Positions 28,096-32,091 of a stretch of 64,000 nucleotides of DNA are shown piece by piece; positions within the stretch are counted from its first letter, which is position 1; every line of letters begins with the position of its first letter. The DNA lies in assembly GCA_947447525.1 (NCBI GenBank), contig CANFJL010000001.1:186001-250000 (forward strand). Direction: 5' to 3'. This DNA comes from Flavobacteriales bacterium (lineage in GTDB: Bacteria > Bacteroidota > Bacteroidia > Flavobacteriales_D > Crocinitomicaceae). The notes below the pieces were generated by a model. That model was given only the letters and a program-made list of their open reading frames with translations, was not told the DNA's origin and did no database searches. Made by a program: the position numbers and the translations under genes.

Positions 28096-29013
28096 GTGAA
28101 ATTATTTCGTTTTTCTTTTAAAATAATTACTGTAATTGGATTGATTTTCCTTTTCAATAATTGCTTGTGCGCACAAACTGATGTTGAAATTGATCTTGAT
28201 GATTCATTGATGGTGGATACTGTCAGCATTCCCGTTAAAGTTTCAATTAATTTGCCTCCTTTTGTGTTGATTCATCCAGATACCATTCAATTGGGTGAGC
28301 ATGATCAATTGGTTTGTGATTCTTATTGCGCTTCTGGCATGCCAGCTATATACGATGCCTTGCATTCCTTTAATGCGCGTAGAATGGATAAGTTCGGCGG
28401 ATATATAAATTCAAAAATTAATAAAGGTCTAGAAGATATCCGCAAAAAAGGATTTAAATCGGATGTTAAAAAACTCTACATTCAAATAGACCCCATTACT
28501 TTAACGGTTCATTGGATTGCTGTTGTAGGTCCAAGTACAGATGGGAAATGTTATGTTCGTTTTGATAGTCGTGGTTCTGCAGGTGGGGGAGTGCCCGCTG
28601 TTGAGAAACAATTGAATACCATGCATAGCCTCTATCCAACACTGACGGCAACCAAATTGCTTGAATTTAATGAAAATGTGGTCAAATGTTACGATTGGAA
28701 TGGGACCCAACTCAATTCGTATTGTAGCTCTGTTAATATTCGTCAGCATTTTTATAAATATTATGATGCTCAAGTAGATGCAGTAATCTCATTGGAAGAA
28801 TATACTAAACGCTATCCTTGTAATACGGAAGGAGCTAGTTTGCCTGGTGTGAAAAAAGTATTTGTGGCTCCTCAACGCAAATACAAGGTAAAATATGGAG
28901 ATAGTTTAATTAAAATTGCAAACAAGTACCATACAACAGTCGCAAAAATTAAAAAAGCGAATGGCTTGCGTTCTGATATGATTAGAATTGGTCAAGTTTT
29001 GAAAATTCCTTAA
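28096..29013 (+). CDS. Secreted LysM-domain protein with uncharacterised N-terminal domain
   Basis: A GTG start gives 305 residues with a signal peptide (MKLFRFSFKIITVIGLIFLFNNCLCAQ). Residues about 60-235 form an unrecognised domain with several cysteines (VCDSYCASGMPA, VKCYDWNG, NSYCSS). Residues about 257-305 are a single LysM module (YKVKYGDSLIKIANKYHTTVAKIKKAN...IRIGQVLKIP) that should bind peptidoglycan or chitin-like sugars. It is probably periplasmic or cell-wall associated. No catalytic motif of NlpC/P60 or lytic transglycosylases was seen. Confidence 0.8.
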   Translation: MKLFRFSFKIITVIGLIFLFNNCLCAQTDVEIDLDDSLMVDTVSIPVKVSINLPPFVLIHPDTIQLGEHDQLVCDSYCASGMPAIYDALHSFNARRMDKFGGYINSKINKGLEDIRKKGFKSDVKKLYIQIDPITLTVHWIAVVGPSTDGKCYVRFDSRGSAGGGVPAVEKQLNTMHSLYPTLTATKLLEFNENVVKCYDWNGTQLNSYCSSVNIRQHFYKYYDAQVDAVISLEEYTKRYPCNTEGASLPGVKKVFVAPQRKYKVKYGDSLIKIANKYHTTVAKIKKANGLRSDMIRIGQVLKIP

Positions 29014-29081
29014 TGTTCTTGATCAAATAAACAAAAAGTGTCAATTCGTGTTTAATATCTGTAGTTTCAAATTACAGTTAA

Positions 29082-29351
29082 ATGGAACAAGCAGACATAG
29101 ATCGTATTATAGAAATGGCTTGGGAAGACAGAACCCCTTTTGAAGCGATATTGGTGCAATTCGGTCAAACAGAAACACAGGTTATTGCATTGATGCGAAA
29201 GGAATTAAAGCGCAGTAGTTTTATTCTCTGGCGCGATCGTGTGAATAGTGGTGTAAGTTTAAAACATGCTAAAAAACGAAATCCAGAAATTGACCGCTTT
29301 AAATGTTCTCGTCAAACGAATATTTCGATGAACAAAATCTCTAAACGATAA
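29082..29351 (+). CDS. TIGR03643/DUF2805 family protein
   Basis: An 89-residue basic protein with the family pattern IDRIIEMAWEDRTPFEAI, FGQTE..VIALMRKELK and FILWRDRVNSG. It looks like a small helical, HTH-like protein. The family is known from genomes where it lies beside photolyase/cryptochrome genes; its function is unknown. That neighbour is present here only as a truncated remnant starting on the very next base. Confidence 0.85.
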   Translation: MEQADIDRIIEMAWEDRTPFEAILVQFGQTETQVIALMRKELKRSSFILWRDRVNSGVSLKHAKKRNPEIDRFKCSRQTNISMNKISKR

Positions 29352-29555
29352 GTGAATTTTCCCACCAAATACATTGAGATTCTTGAGCGAATTCAGGAGA
29401 TAGATCCTGTAAAGTATGGTCAGACTCGAAATTACTTGAATGGAGCGGTTACCTACCTTTCTCCTTATATTTCAAGAGGTGTGATCAGCACCAAGTTGGT
29501 CTTAGATACCGTTCTTGCGAAAGGCTATCCATTAGAGGAAATTGAAAGGATTTGA
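29352..29555 (+). pseudogene. 5' remnant of a photolyase/cryptochrome-like FAD-binding gene
   Basis: A GTG abutting the DUF2805 stop opens 67 codons: MNFPTKYIEILERIQ, IDPVKYGQTRNYLNGAVTYL, SPYISRGVISTKLVL, GYPLEEIERI, then TGA. This is the start of the FAD-binding helical domain found in Bacteroidota photolyase-related proteins, which normally continue for several hundred residues (next segment usually ELAWRDY). Neither alternate frame downstream carries the family on for more than a few codons before the Fic gene. The conserved FAD and DNA-contacting C-terminal part is missing, so it cannot be an active photolyase. Confidence 0.7.
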
Positions 29556-29627
29556 AGCGGATTGCGTTGGAACTAGAAAAATGAATAATTTATACATGAG
29601 AACGTTGTCTTGTATAATTATATTTAA

Positions 29628-29635
29628 TATCTTTA
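29628..29635 (+). promoter_or_regulatory. Near-consensus -7 box (TATCTTTA) for the fic gene
   Basis: TATCTTTA differs from TAnnTTTG at one base. It lies immediately before the upstream ATG at 29637, so a transcript starting about four bases downstream would miss that ATG; this favours the ATG at 29682. Confidence 0.4.
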
Positions 29636-29674
29636 CATGACAATACTATCAGGCAAAAACTCTTTACATGACAA
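29630..29674 (+). repeat. 14-bp direct repeat at the 5' end of fic
   Basis: TCTTTACATGACAA occurs perfectly at 29630-29643 and 29661-29674, a 31-base period. The first copy overlaps the -7 box, and the second lies eight bases before the preferred fic start. Confidence 0.8.
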
Positions 29675-29681
29675 AAATGAG

Positions 29682-30779
29682 ATGAATAGAAAAGATAACG
29701 CTGATTTACCATTTAATGATCTGCCTTTATTACCTCCTGCCAAAGAACAGATTGAATCTGTTGTTATTTTGAAGCAATTGGTGAAATCCTCAGTTGCACT
29801 TGCTGAATTAAAAGGAATAATAAATATTTTGCCTAATCCAGAAATTTTACTCAATGCGGTTGTCCTGAAAGAAGCAAGAGCAAGTTCAGAAATAGAAAAT
29901 GTAATAACTACTCAAGATAAATTGTATCAAGCATTATCGGCAAAGGGCGATCAAATAGATACTTCCACTAAAGAAGTATTGAGATACAGAGAGGCAATGT
30001 TATTCGGATTCAGAACAATCCAGCAAAAATACATCCTTACCATCAATACGATTATTGAAATCCAGCAAATTCTTGAAGAAAATAATGCGGGTATTAGAAA
30101 ACTACCCGGAACTGCTTTGAGAAATTCAGTAACGAGAAAGGTTATTTATATCCCGCCTGATCAAACAGATGTGATCAATTCGCTGTTGAGCAATTTGGAA
30201 AAGTTTATCAATCTTGATGAAAACGAAATTCCTCATTTGATAAAAATGGCTATTCAACATTACCAATTTGAGAGTATACACCCATTTTATGATGGGAATG
30301 GCCGCACTGGACGAATTCTTAATATTCTCTATCTTATTATGACTGGTCTGCTCGAACAACCCATCTTGTTTCTTAGCAGTTACATCATTGAAAATAAGTC
30401 AGAATATTATCGATTACTCCAAGAGGTAAGAACGAATAACAAATGGGAAGACTGGATTCTTTATATCTTGAAAGGAGTTGAAATAACTGCTAAAGCCACT
30501 ATAAAACAAGTTACAGAAATTAATACGCTTTTTGAACTAACCAAGGAAAAGACAAAGAATGAGATTCCGAAAATATACAGTAAAGAATTGATTGAATTGC
30601 TATTCGAACATCCGTACAGTAAGAGTGAATATTTGGAAAATCGATTGTCTATCTCACGCATTACAGCTGCAAAATACCTCAAGGCACTGGAGAATATTGG
30701 AATTCTTCAGTCAAAAAAGGTTTGGAAGGAAACACTGTATATCAATACTGCACTTTTTGAACTATTAAAGAAGTACTGA
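29682..30779 (+). CDS. Fic family protein (self-inhibited AMP-transferase type)
   Basis: A 365-residue Fic protein, expected to transfer AMP (or another nucleotide) to a hydroxyl of a target protein. The N-terminal Fic/DOC helix region carries the inhibitory motif (S/T)xxxE(G/N) as S68-S-E-I-E72-N73, in front of the core: class II, controlled within one chain. The catalytic motif HPFYDGNGRTGR starts at His200 and is canonical. The C-terminal 75 residues form a winged-helix-like module (HPYSKSEYLENRLSISRITAAKYLKALENIGIL). Start 29682 (MNRKDNADLPF) is preferred on promoter position; 29637 would add 15 residues. No antitoxin gene accompanies it. It sits between a truncated gene and a tRNA 3' end, which suggests acquisition. 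Confidence 0.92.
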   Translation: MNRKDNADLPFNDLPLLPPAKEQIESVVILKQLVKSSVALAELKGIINILPNPEILLNAVVLKEARASSEIENVITTQDKLYQALSAKGDQIDTSTKEVLRYREAMLFGFRTIQQKYILTINTIIEIQQILEENNAGIRKLPGTALRNSVTRKVIYIPPDQTDVINSLLSNLEKFINLDENEIPHLIKMAIQHYQFESIHPFYDGNGRTGRILNILYLIMTGLLEQPILFLSSYIIENKSEYYRLLQEVRTNNKWEDWILYILKGVEITAKATIKQVTEINTLFELTKEKTKNEIPKIYSKELIELLFEHPYSKSEYLENRLSISRITAAKYLKALENIGILQSKKVWKETLYINTALFELLKKY

Positions 30780-30801
30780 AATTAATTAGATTTTCTAAAC
30801 G

Positions 30802-30830
30802 AAAAAGCCACTATTTTAGTGGCTTTTTTT
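30802..30830 (+). terminator. Terminator of fic
   Basis: Twelve-base stem AAAAAGCCACTA/TAGTGGCTTTTT with a TTT loop, then more T. Seven bases separate it from the tRNA 3' end. Confidence 0.92.
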
Positions 30831-30836
30831 GTTTTG

Positions 30837-30910
30837 TGGTCCCACTTGGAATCGAACCAAGCACCTACTGATTATGAGTCAGTTGCTCTAACCGAATGAG
30901 CTATAGGACC
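30837..30910 (-). tRNA. tRNA-Met (anticodon CAU)
   Basis: The minus strand folds into a full cloverleaf: acceptor GGTCCTA/TGGGACC (one G-U), D stem GCTC/GAGC, anticodon stem ACTGA/TCAGT with loop CTCATAA, five-base variable loop, T stem CTTGG/CCAAG with loop TTCGATT, and discriminator A. The anticodon CAT is at 30874-30876. CCA is not encoded. The body resembles elongator tRNA-Met rather than initiator; tRNA-Ile2 (lysidine-modified CAU) cannot be fully excluded. Confidence 0.93.
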
Positions 30911-31045: not shown

Positions 31046-32047
31046 TTATTTTTTTAATCTAAGTGCACCCATCCACAAAATACCAAAGAGTATACTTGCG
31101 AAGACTAAATGTGATGTTTGCACCAATCCTGGCATGTCTGCATAAGCCAATAGCACTCCTGAAATTAATTCAATAACTAATATTAGTAGTGCGAGACGTA
31201 TGAGTTTAATTTTCTCGCCTTTTTCGTTTTTCCATGTCAAATAGACCATGGCCACCAATACAAGCCAAGAAAAACTCCGGTGAATATAAAATGGCATTCC
31301 TAATTTATCCGTCCATTGGTCTCTTCCAATACCTTGCTTAGTGAGTTGATCTATTGCTTCTCGTACTTGTGTCCCCAGTATCATTTGGTAGAAAGTAATG
31401 ATAAACACGATCCAGATGATACTTCTAATGACGGAGGAGGCCTTTATTTCTTTGCTTTTTGGTTCGTTAATTTTATAGGTAATGTAGAGTTGTATTCCTA
31501 TTATTATCAATGCAATTAATAGGTGAATCGTAATGGTCCAGGGTACTAAATTGCTCGCTACAACGAGTGATCCAAACCATCCTTCAAATCCCATTAAGAT
31601 TAAATTTAATGCAAGCAACCAGATTAATTTCGATTTTCTGTATCTAAGTAACATCCATCCAAATCCAAAAAGCATTAAATTACCGGCTAAGAAACCAACT
31701 AATCTATTTAAATATTCCGTCCAAGTACGTTTTACATTAAAGGGTTCATCTTTATAAATAGATGGATCTTTTTTTATCCGTTCAGCTGTTTCCTCCATGC
31801 CTATGGCAACTAAGAACTTACTGTATTTCTCTACTTTTTTTGTTCTTTTCGCAAGATAAATCGCTTTGTAATCTTGAGGAAGTTGTCTTGCTTGGGTAGG
31901 AGGTACCCATGATCCAAAACACTTAGGCCAGTCTGGACAACCCATACCACTTCCTGTAATTCTTACAAAACTACCCGCAACAACTACTAGATAAAGGAGT
32001 ACTACTAAGACCCAATTGAAACGGACAAATGATTTTGAAAATTGCAT
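31046..32047 (-). CDS. ctaA: Heme A synthase (COX15/CtaA)
   Basis: An eight-helix inner-membrane enzyme that oxidises heme O to heme A for cytochrome oxidase. The 333 residues start at the ATG at 32047 (an in-frame TTG at 32053 is weaker). Family marks are GSFVRITGSGMGCPDWPKCFG after helix 1, EYLNRLVGFLAG at helix 2, and heme-ligand candidate histidines in TIHLLIAL, YIHRSFSW and TSHLVFAS. A charged loop of about 65 residues after the first helix is known in Bacteroidota homologues. No other cytochrome oxidase gene is nearby. Confidence 0.93.
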   Translation of the reverse strand: MQFSKSFVRFNWVLVVLLYLVVVAGSFVRITGSGMGCPDWPKCFGSWVPPTQARQLPQDYKAIYLAKRTKKVEKYSKFLVAIGMEETAERIKKDPSIYKDEPFNVKRTWTEYLNRLVGFLAGNLMLFGFGWMLLRYRKSKLIWLLALNLILMGFEGWFGSLVVASNLVPWTITIHLLIALIIIGIQLYITYKINEPKSKEIKASSVIRSIIWIVFIITFYQMILGTQVREAIDQLTKQGIGRDQWTDKLGMPFYIHRSFSWLVLVAMVYLTWKNEKGEKIKLIRLALLILVIELISGVLLAYADMPGLVQTSHLVFASILFGILWMGALRLKK

Positions 32048-32091
32048 GTTCAAAATTACTTATTTTGTGCTAATGGCCTATTATTTTAAAC

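What the first reader, a model, noticed from the sequence alone, without database searches (positions are those of the whole stretch)
29082..30910. Photolyase-family gene cut off behind DUF2805 and replaced by a self-inhibited Fic gene next to a tRNA 3' end
The sequence shows a 67-codon fragment that reads as the start of a photolyase/cryptochrome FAD domain (KYGQTRNYLNGAVTYLSPYI) abutting the DUF2805 stop. Its continuation is gone, and a Fic gene with its own near-consensus promoter and terminator fills the space up to tRNA-Met. DUF2805 commonly neighbours photolyases, so the ancestral pair was probably intact. This looks like a small acquisition or deletion scar that cost the cell the photolyase-related enzyme and left DUF2805 as an orphan.
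Basis: partly seen in the sequence, partly recalled or inferred. Interest (0 to 1): 0.6.

Follow-up and report, generated by a model that had tools for sequence, protein, structure and literature searches.

The report
Photolyase operon deleted into defence cassette
In this bacterium a deletion removed most of a light-repair gene cluster and fused its stump to a self-inhibited Fic toxin gene, and that Fic gene looks like one of many exchangeable toxin or defence gene cassettes that sit at the ends of tRNA genes behind a shared 52-base border sequence.

Summary
In detail: DUF2805, a 67-codon stump of a 367-residue FAD-domain (photolyase-family) gene, a class II Fic gene and tRNA-Met. The mechanism needs correcting. 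Relative G214 keeps the likely parent order: DUF2805, FAD gene, photolyase, DPRP photolyase, pntB, pntA, tRNA-Met. In the window everything from FAD codon 67 to pntA is missing, and the break (29548/29549) lies inside the left border of the Fic module. Sister MAG RH504 lost the same stretch with another break (codon ~184): two deletions. The 170 bases before the window's break are identical to G021 but differ from RH504 at 22, so a recent recombination tract abuts it. Fic did not replace the photolyase: it is a SoFic cassette of tRNA-Met. Its border, a 52-bp site, has 61 matches in 37 of 399 genomes of the order (control 1); 33 of 65 copies examined have a tRNA 3' end within 4.4 kb downstream, all antisense (upstream: 1). 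Of 51 units of 250 bases or more, 28 carry toxin-antitoxin or defence-type genes (upstream control 6 of 48). None of 40 genomes has an integron integrase over cut-off. The recombinase and actual mobility remain unproven.

The parts
28096..29013 (+). LysM-domain gene, left flank shared with G021 and RH504
   Evidence: PF01476; aligned in L042 and L085
29082..29351 (+). DUF2805 / TIGR03643 gene, left without its partner operon
   Evidence: dN 0.014, dS 0.272 against G021
29352..29548 (+). 5' stump (about 66 codons) of the antenna-less FAD-domain photolyase-family gene; the ORF runs on to 29555 in foreign sequence
29379..29548 (.). recombination tract: 0 of 170 differences to G021, 22 of 170 to RH504, ending at the breakpoint
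29548..29549 (.). deletion junction between the FAD-domain gene (codon 66/67) and the SoFic cassette border (core position about +28)
29549..29584 (+). remnant of the 52-bp cassette border (to about 29562) and its downstream tail; the GTGG...TCGAAC core is lost here
29590..29674 (+). operator-like half-sites of the type TWTACATGA at about 29592, 29608 (inverted, degenerate), 29633 and 29664; function inferred
   Evidence: present in the SoFic cassettes aligned; repeats
29637..30779 (+). SoFic-type class II Fic adenylyltransferase gene (380 aa as listed; a start at 29682, MNRKD..., may fit better, because the start used in the relatives lies in the last half-site and is out of frame by one base here)
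   Evidence: NF046030, below its cut-off; PADLOC SoFic
30801..30829 (+). terminator hairpin at the right end of the cassette
30836..30839 (.). cassette / tRNA 3'-end boundary (GTGG)
30836..30910 (-). tRNA-Met (CAT), anchor of the cassette locus
31046..32053 (-). COX15/CtaA gene, right flank shared with RH504

Best explanation
The parent locus was DUF2805 - FAD-domain gene - photolyase - DPRP photolyase - pntB - pntA - cassettes - tRNA-Met. The Fic gene is one interchangeable toxin/defence cassette docked at the 3' end of tRNA-Met behind a 52-bp border site. A deletion by illegitimate recombination joined FAD codon 66 to the inner part of that border and removed the rest of the FAD gene, two further photolyase-family genes, pntB/pntA and the border core. 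A sister lineage did the same with another break. Shown: both gene orders, both breakpoints, no trace of the deleted genes in G000 by DNA search, the recombination tract next to the break, the border site, its one-sided position relative to tRNA 3' ends and the swapping of cargo. Inferred: the parent order in the window's own lineage; that a recombinase moves the cassettes; that a recent exchange with a G021-like donor preceded or caused the deletion; that Fic is a toxin kept in check by its own inhibitory helix and by a winged-helix/operator loop; that losing the border core froze the cassette in place.
For: Window DNA matches G021 up to 29548 and the SoFic modules of other genomes from 29542-29559 on. 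G214 has the intact order ending at tRNA-Met; G021 has it to pntA, followed by what reads by eye as a decayed tRNA-Met end. Of G021 downstream of the break only short repeats are found in G000, and no further FAD-gene part; likewise only short repeats in RH504. RH504 keeps about 184 FAD codons but less of the Fic side, so neither junction derives from the other by further loss. Tract: 0/170 against 20/355 differences to G021 and 22/170 against 11/355 to RH504 (Fisher p 4e-4 and 3e-5); the next longest identical run in the aligned blocks is 74. Cassette edges: of 48 pairwise alignments that run through the border in register, 20 begin at GTGG (+/-1 base), 39 within 12 bases, 9 further left. The site is sharp in 23 aligned copies. 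tRNA downstream and antisense 33 of 65, downstream and sense 0, upstream 1. Different cargo at one tRNA-Met locus.
Against: No recombinase, circle or excision was seen. 31 of 65 border copies have no tRNA within 4.5 kb on either side, and 17 of these have at least 4.5 kb of sequence held downstream. In 9 of 48 alignments the homology goes past the border to the left. 23 of 51 units of at least 250 bases have none of the 19 sample proteins, among them ordinary neighbours such as pntB in G214, so the site may also spread alone. The sample proteins came from these loci, so that tally is not blind. All genomes are assemblies, many MAGs; reads at the junction were not checked. RH504 is incomplete (75% if it is G394, as its contig lengths indicate), so absence there is weak. 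The parent order rests on G214 and G021.
Confidence: 0.75

Rival explanations
1. Fic was acquired by insertion into the photolyase gene and replaced its 3' part.
For: Fic is a defence-type gene and fills the gap.
Against: Fic genes 90-92% identical have no photolyase DNA in the left flanks held and have tRNA-Met downstream in 5 of 6. No photolyase 3' part is found in G000, which an insertion would leave. RH504 has the same gene pair joined at other points.
Confidence: 0.07
2. Homology-facilitated illegitimate recombination: one event in which incoming G021-like DNA paired over about 170 bp of the FAD gene and joined illegitimately to the Fic border, deleting what lay between.
For: The donor-like identical tract ends exactly at the break; the junction shows only a few bases of possible microhomology. 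One-ended events of this kind are described for three competent species and for E. coli conjugation (PMC3240628, start of abstract seen in the listing).
Against: A gene-conversion tract later cut by an ordinary deletion leaves the same picture. The RH504 deletion was not tested for such a tract.
Confidence: 0.35
3. The 52-bp site is not a recombination site but a repeat or terminator-linked element scattered near tRNAs; cargo is shuffled by ordinary homologous recombination between these repeats.
For: ORF-less units of about 150 bp and 104-bp tandem tRNA-end units exist; 31 of 65 copies have no tRNA near in the held sequence; 9 of 48 alignments run on to the left of the border.
Against: 39 of 48 alignments start within 12 bases of GTGG in differing contexts; one cassette type occurs upstream of tRNA-Met, -Val and -Ala; the tRNA is downstream and antisense in 33 of 33.
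Confidence: 0.3
4. Assembly chimera at 29548.
For: Only assemblies were available; no reads.
Against: No long shared sequence spans the junction, it lies inside a 565-kb contig, and another assembly has the same gene order with another break.
Confidence: 0.05

Closest known systems
SoFic / Sofic (class II Fic adenylyltransferase, anti-phage)
   Same: Domains, catalytic motif, N-terminal inhibitory motif and C-terminal domain; best solved relatives are SoFic-type entries 9vjc, 9tch, 3zcn, 3eqx; PADLOC SoFic 2.5e-113
   Different: Scores 416.9 bits against the NCBIfam equivalog cut-off of 550. The E. coli protein has a 47-residue antitoxin gene AS1 downstream (PMC12249575, part 1 of 4 of the text read); here only 56 nt, holding the terminator, lie between fic and tRNA.
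Integron gene-cassette arrays (attC/IntI)
   Same: Short cassettes in arrays, one border site per cassette, ORF-less units, exchange of order, toxin-antitoxin/defence cargo (integron side recalled)
   Different: No match over the TIGR02249 cut-off in 40 of 40 genomes (no positive control among the 14 named genomes); docking at tRNA 3' ends; border core does not fit RYYYAAC/GTTRRRY (boxes recalled, compared by eye)
tRNA-targeting integrative elements, satellites, tycheposons (recalled)
   Same: Insertion at the 3' end of tRNA genes with the tRNA left intact
   Different: Units mostly of 0.1-3 kb, no integrase noticed within them; tandem arrays; one border shared between tRNA-Met, Phe, His, Val and Ala sites
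Photolyase / cryptochrome cluster with DUF2805 (FAD-domain gene, DNA photolyase, DPRP)
   Same: G021, G036, G015 and G214 carry DUF2805 - FAD - PHR - DPRP in this order
   Different: In the window only DUF2805 and a 66-codon stump remain

Membership tests
Photolyase FAD_binding_7 family (the stump) | FAD-binding domain PF03441 | tested here: not met
   No Pfam hit for the 67-mer; in the full-length homologue the domain match begins at residue 67. It is a remnant of such a gene, not a member enzyme.
Photolyase FAD_binding_7 family (the stump) | homology to the N-terminus of full-length members | tested here: met
   95% over 66 aa to G021; matches in 32 of 60 genomes, own included; alignment A2
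Class II Fic / SoFic | HPFx[DE]GNGRxxR catalytic motif | tested here: met
   HPFYDGNGRTGR at residue 215
Class II Fic / SoFic | N-terminal inhibitory [ST]xxxE[GN] | tested here: met
   SSEIEN at residue 83; the short pattern also occurs at 248 and 330
Class II Fic / SoFic | NCBIfam equivalog cut-off NF046030 | tested here: not met
   416.9 of 550 bits; PADLOC SoFic profile matched over residues 31-378. Filed as SoFic-type, not as the equivalog.
Class II Fic / SoFic | AMPylation toxicity / phage protection | not testable with these tools
   needs expression
Integron | IntI integrase (TIGR02249 over cut-off) | tested here: not met
   0 of 40 genomes over cut-off; 40 of 40 and all 14 control genomes have weaker matches, as other tyrosine recombinases would give; matches were scored piecewise, and no control genome is a known positive
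Integron | attC site with R'/R'' boxes and hairpin | tested here: inconclusive
   Core compared by eye only; no attC model run
tRNA-site integrative element | position and orientation at tRNA 3' ends | tested here: met
   33 of 65 copies have a tRNA within 4.4 kb downstream, 33 of 33 antisense; 1 of 65 has one upstream, with similar lengths held on both sides (227 and 269 kb)
tRNA-site integrative element | own integrase | tested here: inconclusive
   One tyrosine integrase beside a tRNA-Met end (L086); no relative of that protein in the other array loci searched; other integrase types were not sought there
Insertion of fic into the photolyase gene | gene 3' part on the other side or elsewhere | tested here: not met
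   No further FAD-gene part in G000

The most novel reading that the evidence does not exclude
A so far undescribed class of mobile gene cassettes in Flavobacteriales: units of 0.1 to about 3 kb that begin with a 52-bp border imitating a tRNA 3' end (GTGG, then TCGAAC at 21 instead of 16 bases) and end in a terminator, docked and stacked at the 3' ends of tRNA genes, with a cargo rich in toxin-antitoxin and phage-defence genes that is swapped between genomes and between tRNAs: an integron-like defence bank that uses tRNA genes as its docking site and a recombinase supplied in trans. In the window such a cassette lost its border to a deletion and became fixed.
Probability: 0.5. Interest if true: 0.82.

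Novelty: new variant of a known kind. Interest (0 to 1): 0.62.

Why it matters
If the cassette reading holds, tRNA genes in a Flavobacteriales lineage (order inferred from record titles of the nearest relatives) serve as docking points for exchangeable defence genes, and the 52-bp border is a handle for finding new ones: whatever stands behind it is a candidate. For the given finding, the locus shows how such an array can take a neighbouring cluster with it (three photolyase-family genes and transhydrogenase) twice in sister lineages while the toxin gene stays.

Tried and rejected
Fic inserted into the photolyase gene: rejected, see the rivals. The tail in front of fic (DLKRIALELEK) as the C-terminus of a lost gene or antitoxin: first taken so (I also thought of the Sofic antitoxin), dropped when the same tail was found in front of unrelated cargo, with third codon positions of the core nearly invariant (22-23 of 23) and an in-frame stop before it in L087. 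tRNA-end copies in G004 as simple att duplications: partly dropped; G036 shows tandem 104-bp units. Border as an Rfam RNA: one copy scanned, no match near its gathering score. Border in viral contigs: 0 matches. SoFic module on plasmids: 178 records match, none covers 80% of it; phages: 21 records, best 46.6% identity over 90%. Repeats beside fic in L034 and L039 were at first printed from the wrong side, because loci of minus-strand matches are not turned; corrected, and a family-wide operator motif was not pursued. No AlphaFold job was run. DUF2805 literature: 2 papers hold the word; PMC3597751 was read by passages only: it places DUF2805 in a network spoke linked to translation and does not hold the word photolyase. 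Novelty searches of the paper library: (0 papers); nothing describing such arrays appeared in the listings, of which only titles and abstract starts were seen. Border matches listed but not fetched: G379:C144, G366:C248, G286:C41, G099:C125, G003:C1, G025:C6.
Full report
WHAT IS IN THE WINDOW. DUF2805 (29082-29351) is followed at once by a 67-codon ORF (29352-29555), then a Fic gene (29637-30779), a hairpin terminator (30801-30829), tRNA-Met on the other strand (30836-30910) and COX15 (31046-32053). The 67-mer has no domain hit of its own. It is the N-terminus of a FAD-domain protein family: 32 of 60 genomes searched match at E <= 0.001, own included, and the 367-aa gene of G021 is 95% identical over the first 66 residues, with FAD_binding_7 matched from residue 67. 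DUF2805 lies directly upstream in 8 of 29 relative loci, and a photolyase-type gene follows within the held 1.5 kb in 20 of 29.

THE BREAK. DNA of G021 matches the window up to base 29548; DNA of G004, whose Fic is 90% identical and near tRNA-Met, matches from 29548 on. In G021 the gene continues and is followed by a photolyase (493 aa), a DPRP-type photolyase (495 aa), pntB and pntA (the pnt names rest on recalled sequence). Of this only short repeats are found in G000 by DNA search, and no further part of the FAD gene by protein search. G000 keeps one other photolyase on contig C5. G214 shows the likely parent arrangement in one piece: DUF2805 - FAD - PHR - DPRP - pntB - pntA - tRNA-Met over about 9.2 kb, with two border copies of its own (L264). 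Behind pntA of G021 a stretch reads by eye as a decayed tRNA-Met end.

A SECOND, DIFFERENT BREAK. The closest genome found, MAG RH-23may17-504 (L085; 95% Fic identity), has LysM - DUF2805 - FAD stump - Fic - tRNA-Met - COX15 like the window. Its stump keeps about 184 codons, while its Fic side has lost more, up to half of the palindrome in front of the gene. Neither junction can come from the other by further loss. The downstream genes are also not found in that incomplete genome, short repeats apart.

A RECOMBINATION TRACT AT THE BREAK. Against G021 the window has dS 0.34 in the LysM gene, 0.27 in DUF2805 and 0.023 in the stump. Bases 29379-29548 are identical to G021 (0 of 170) but differ from RH504 at 22 of 170; bases 29024-29378 differ from G021 at 20 of 355 and from RH504 at 11 of 355 (Fisher p 4e-4 and 3e-5). 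The next longest identical run in the other aligned blocks is 74. So a G021-like tract ends at the break: either a recent exchange later cut by the deletion, or one event of homology-facilitated illegitimate recombination (start of the abstract of PMC3240628).

THE FIC GENE IS A CASSETTE. Of the seven loci with full-length Fic genes at least 90% identical (L085-L091), six have tRNA-Met downstream, directly or with other units between; L086 has only the first 15 bases of its end. An eighth copy, L159 of the RH504 bin, is cut by its contig end. Left flanks differ, but homology among them starts near one point, GTGG, ten bases before the core GGTCTGAANTATCGAAC. Over 24 loci, 48 alignments run through the border in register: 20 begin at GTGG (+/-1 base), 39 within 12 bases, 9 further left. 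In 23 copies aligned the site is sharp on the left (position -10) and conserved for about 52 bases; third codon positions of the core hardly vary, so it is conserved as DNA. Counts: 13 exact copies in 9 of 60 genomes, reversed-pattern control 0; 19 copies with up to 2 mismatches in 11 of 60, control 0; 61 matches with up to 1 mismatch in 37 of 399 genomes of the order, control 1. By my count of the printed table these are 23 genomes of the window's genus, 13 of other genera of its family and 1 outside the family. G000 has none at this threshold: the break removed the one that this cassette must have had.

tRNA ANCHORING. In 50 loci scanned (49 hold a copy), 65 copies with up to 2 mismatches were placed. 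33 have a tRNA gene within 4.4 kb downstream (24 Met, 3 Phe, 3 His, 2 Ala, 1 Val), all 33 antisense, so that the tRNA 3' end faces the cassette; none has a sense tRNA downstream; 1 of 65 has a tRNA upstream, although slightly more sequence is held upstream (269 kb) than downstream (227 kb). 31 have none within 4.5 kb on either side; of these 11 have under 1.5 kb of contig downstream, but 17 have at least 4.5 kb. The unit ends immediately before the tRNA end, which reads GTGG in the Met, Phe, Ala and Val cases printed; TCGAAC follows at 16 bases in those four tRNA ends and at 21 in the border. Units without a gene, about 130-190 bp, stand alone at Met, Phe and His genes.

EXCHANGE OF CARGO. At one tRNA-Met locus with 3.0-5.9 kb of common right flank (89-90%), G015 holds an AAA/DUF4143 gene, L089 the SoFic gene and G074 the mobile mystery A/B pair with HEPN-MNT; G015 and G002 contig 15 share 9.3 kb of left flank (91%) with different cargo. 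The winged-helix Fic cassette stands upstream of tRNA-Met in G022, tRNA-Val in G025 and tRNA-Ala in G379 (4.2 kb away), with the left edge at or within 6 bases of GTGG. Zeta and winged-helix Fic cassettes stand in opposite order in G020 and G022.

CARGO TYPES. By Pfam, NCBIfam or PADLOC: SoFic, other Fic, zeta toxin (partial profile match), AbiEi/AbiEii pairs, HEPN-MNT, mobile mystery A/B, CBASS cyclase with patatin, Hachiman HamB, SLATT, AAA/DUF4143 (PDC-S01). With 19 such proteins as queries, 28 of 51 units of at least 250 bases match, 14 units being shorter; of 48 stretches of at least 1 kb on the non-border side 6 match. The queries came from these loci, so the tally is not blind. No match over cut-off: the 738-, 142-, 269- and 266-aa products of G002 and G001, the 357-aa product of G020, the 580-aa product of G112; neighbours in G018, G109, G231, G327, G333 and others carry none of the 19.

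HOW IT MOST LIKELY WORKS. The Fic protein is a class II enzyme (HPFYDGNGRTGR; inhibitory SSEIEN) related to SoFic structures. Sofic of E. coli is described as an abortive-infection toxin with a small antitoxin gene downstream (PMC12249575, part 1 of 4 read); here only 56 nt separate fic from the tRNA. Half-sites TWTACATGA before the gene recur in the SoFic cassettes, and the C-terminal SoFic-like domain may bind them; this is inference. No integron integrase passes its cut-off in 40 genomes, where weaker tyrosine-recombinase matches are found in all 40 and in all 14 control genomes. One tyrosine integrase lies beside a tRNA-Met end in L086 but has no relative in the other array loci. The recombinase is therefore unknown.

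VERDICT. It is larger than proposed, it happened twice, and Fic is not the invader of the photolyase gene but the resident cassette of tRNA-Met.

Noticed in passing
window 29590-29674: Four TWTACATGA-type half-sites, two forming a palindrome, before fic; they recur in the other SoFic cassettes aligned, and the RH504 deletion cut the palindrome in half.
   Followed up: partly
window 29020-29024; L042:6501-7877; L085:4243-4884: The gap between the LysM gene and DUF2805 holds a CAP-domain gene in G021, a different 213-aa gene in RH504 and nothing in the window: a second variable spot beside the first.
   Followed up: no
L180 (G036:C33:1-330): Tandem 104-bp units, each a tRNA-Met 3' end fragment plus terminator, at a contig end.
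   Followed up: partly
L187:10391-13349 (G020): CBASS-like cassette (cyclase, patatin, 357-aa protein without a model over cut-off) behind the border site.
   Followed up: partly
L181:5909-8122 (G002): 738-aa protein behind the border site with no Pfam or PADLOC match; a candidate unknown defence gene.
   Followed up: no
L086:2650-3561: Tyrosine integrase gene (Arm-DNA-bind_5, Phage_int_SAM_5) after a 15-base tRNA-Met end remnant behind the SoFic cassette.
   Followed up: partly
G000:C1:297537-298625: A second SoFic-like Fic gene (44% identical) in the window's genome, outside the window.
   Followed up: no
L264:6946-7000 (G214): A border site without full GTGG stands between DPRP and pntB, where G021 has none.
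   Followed up: partly
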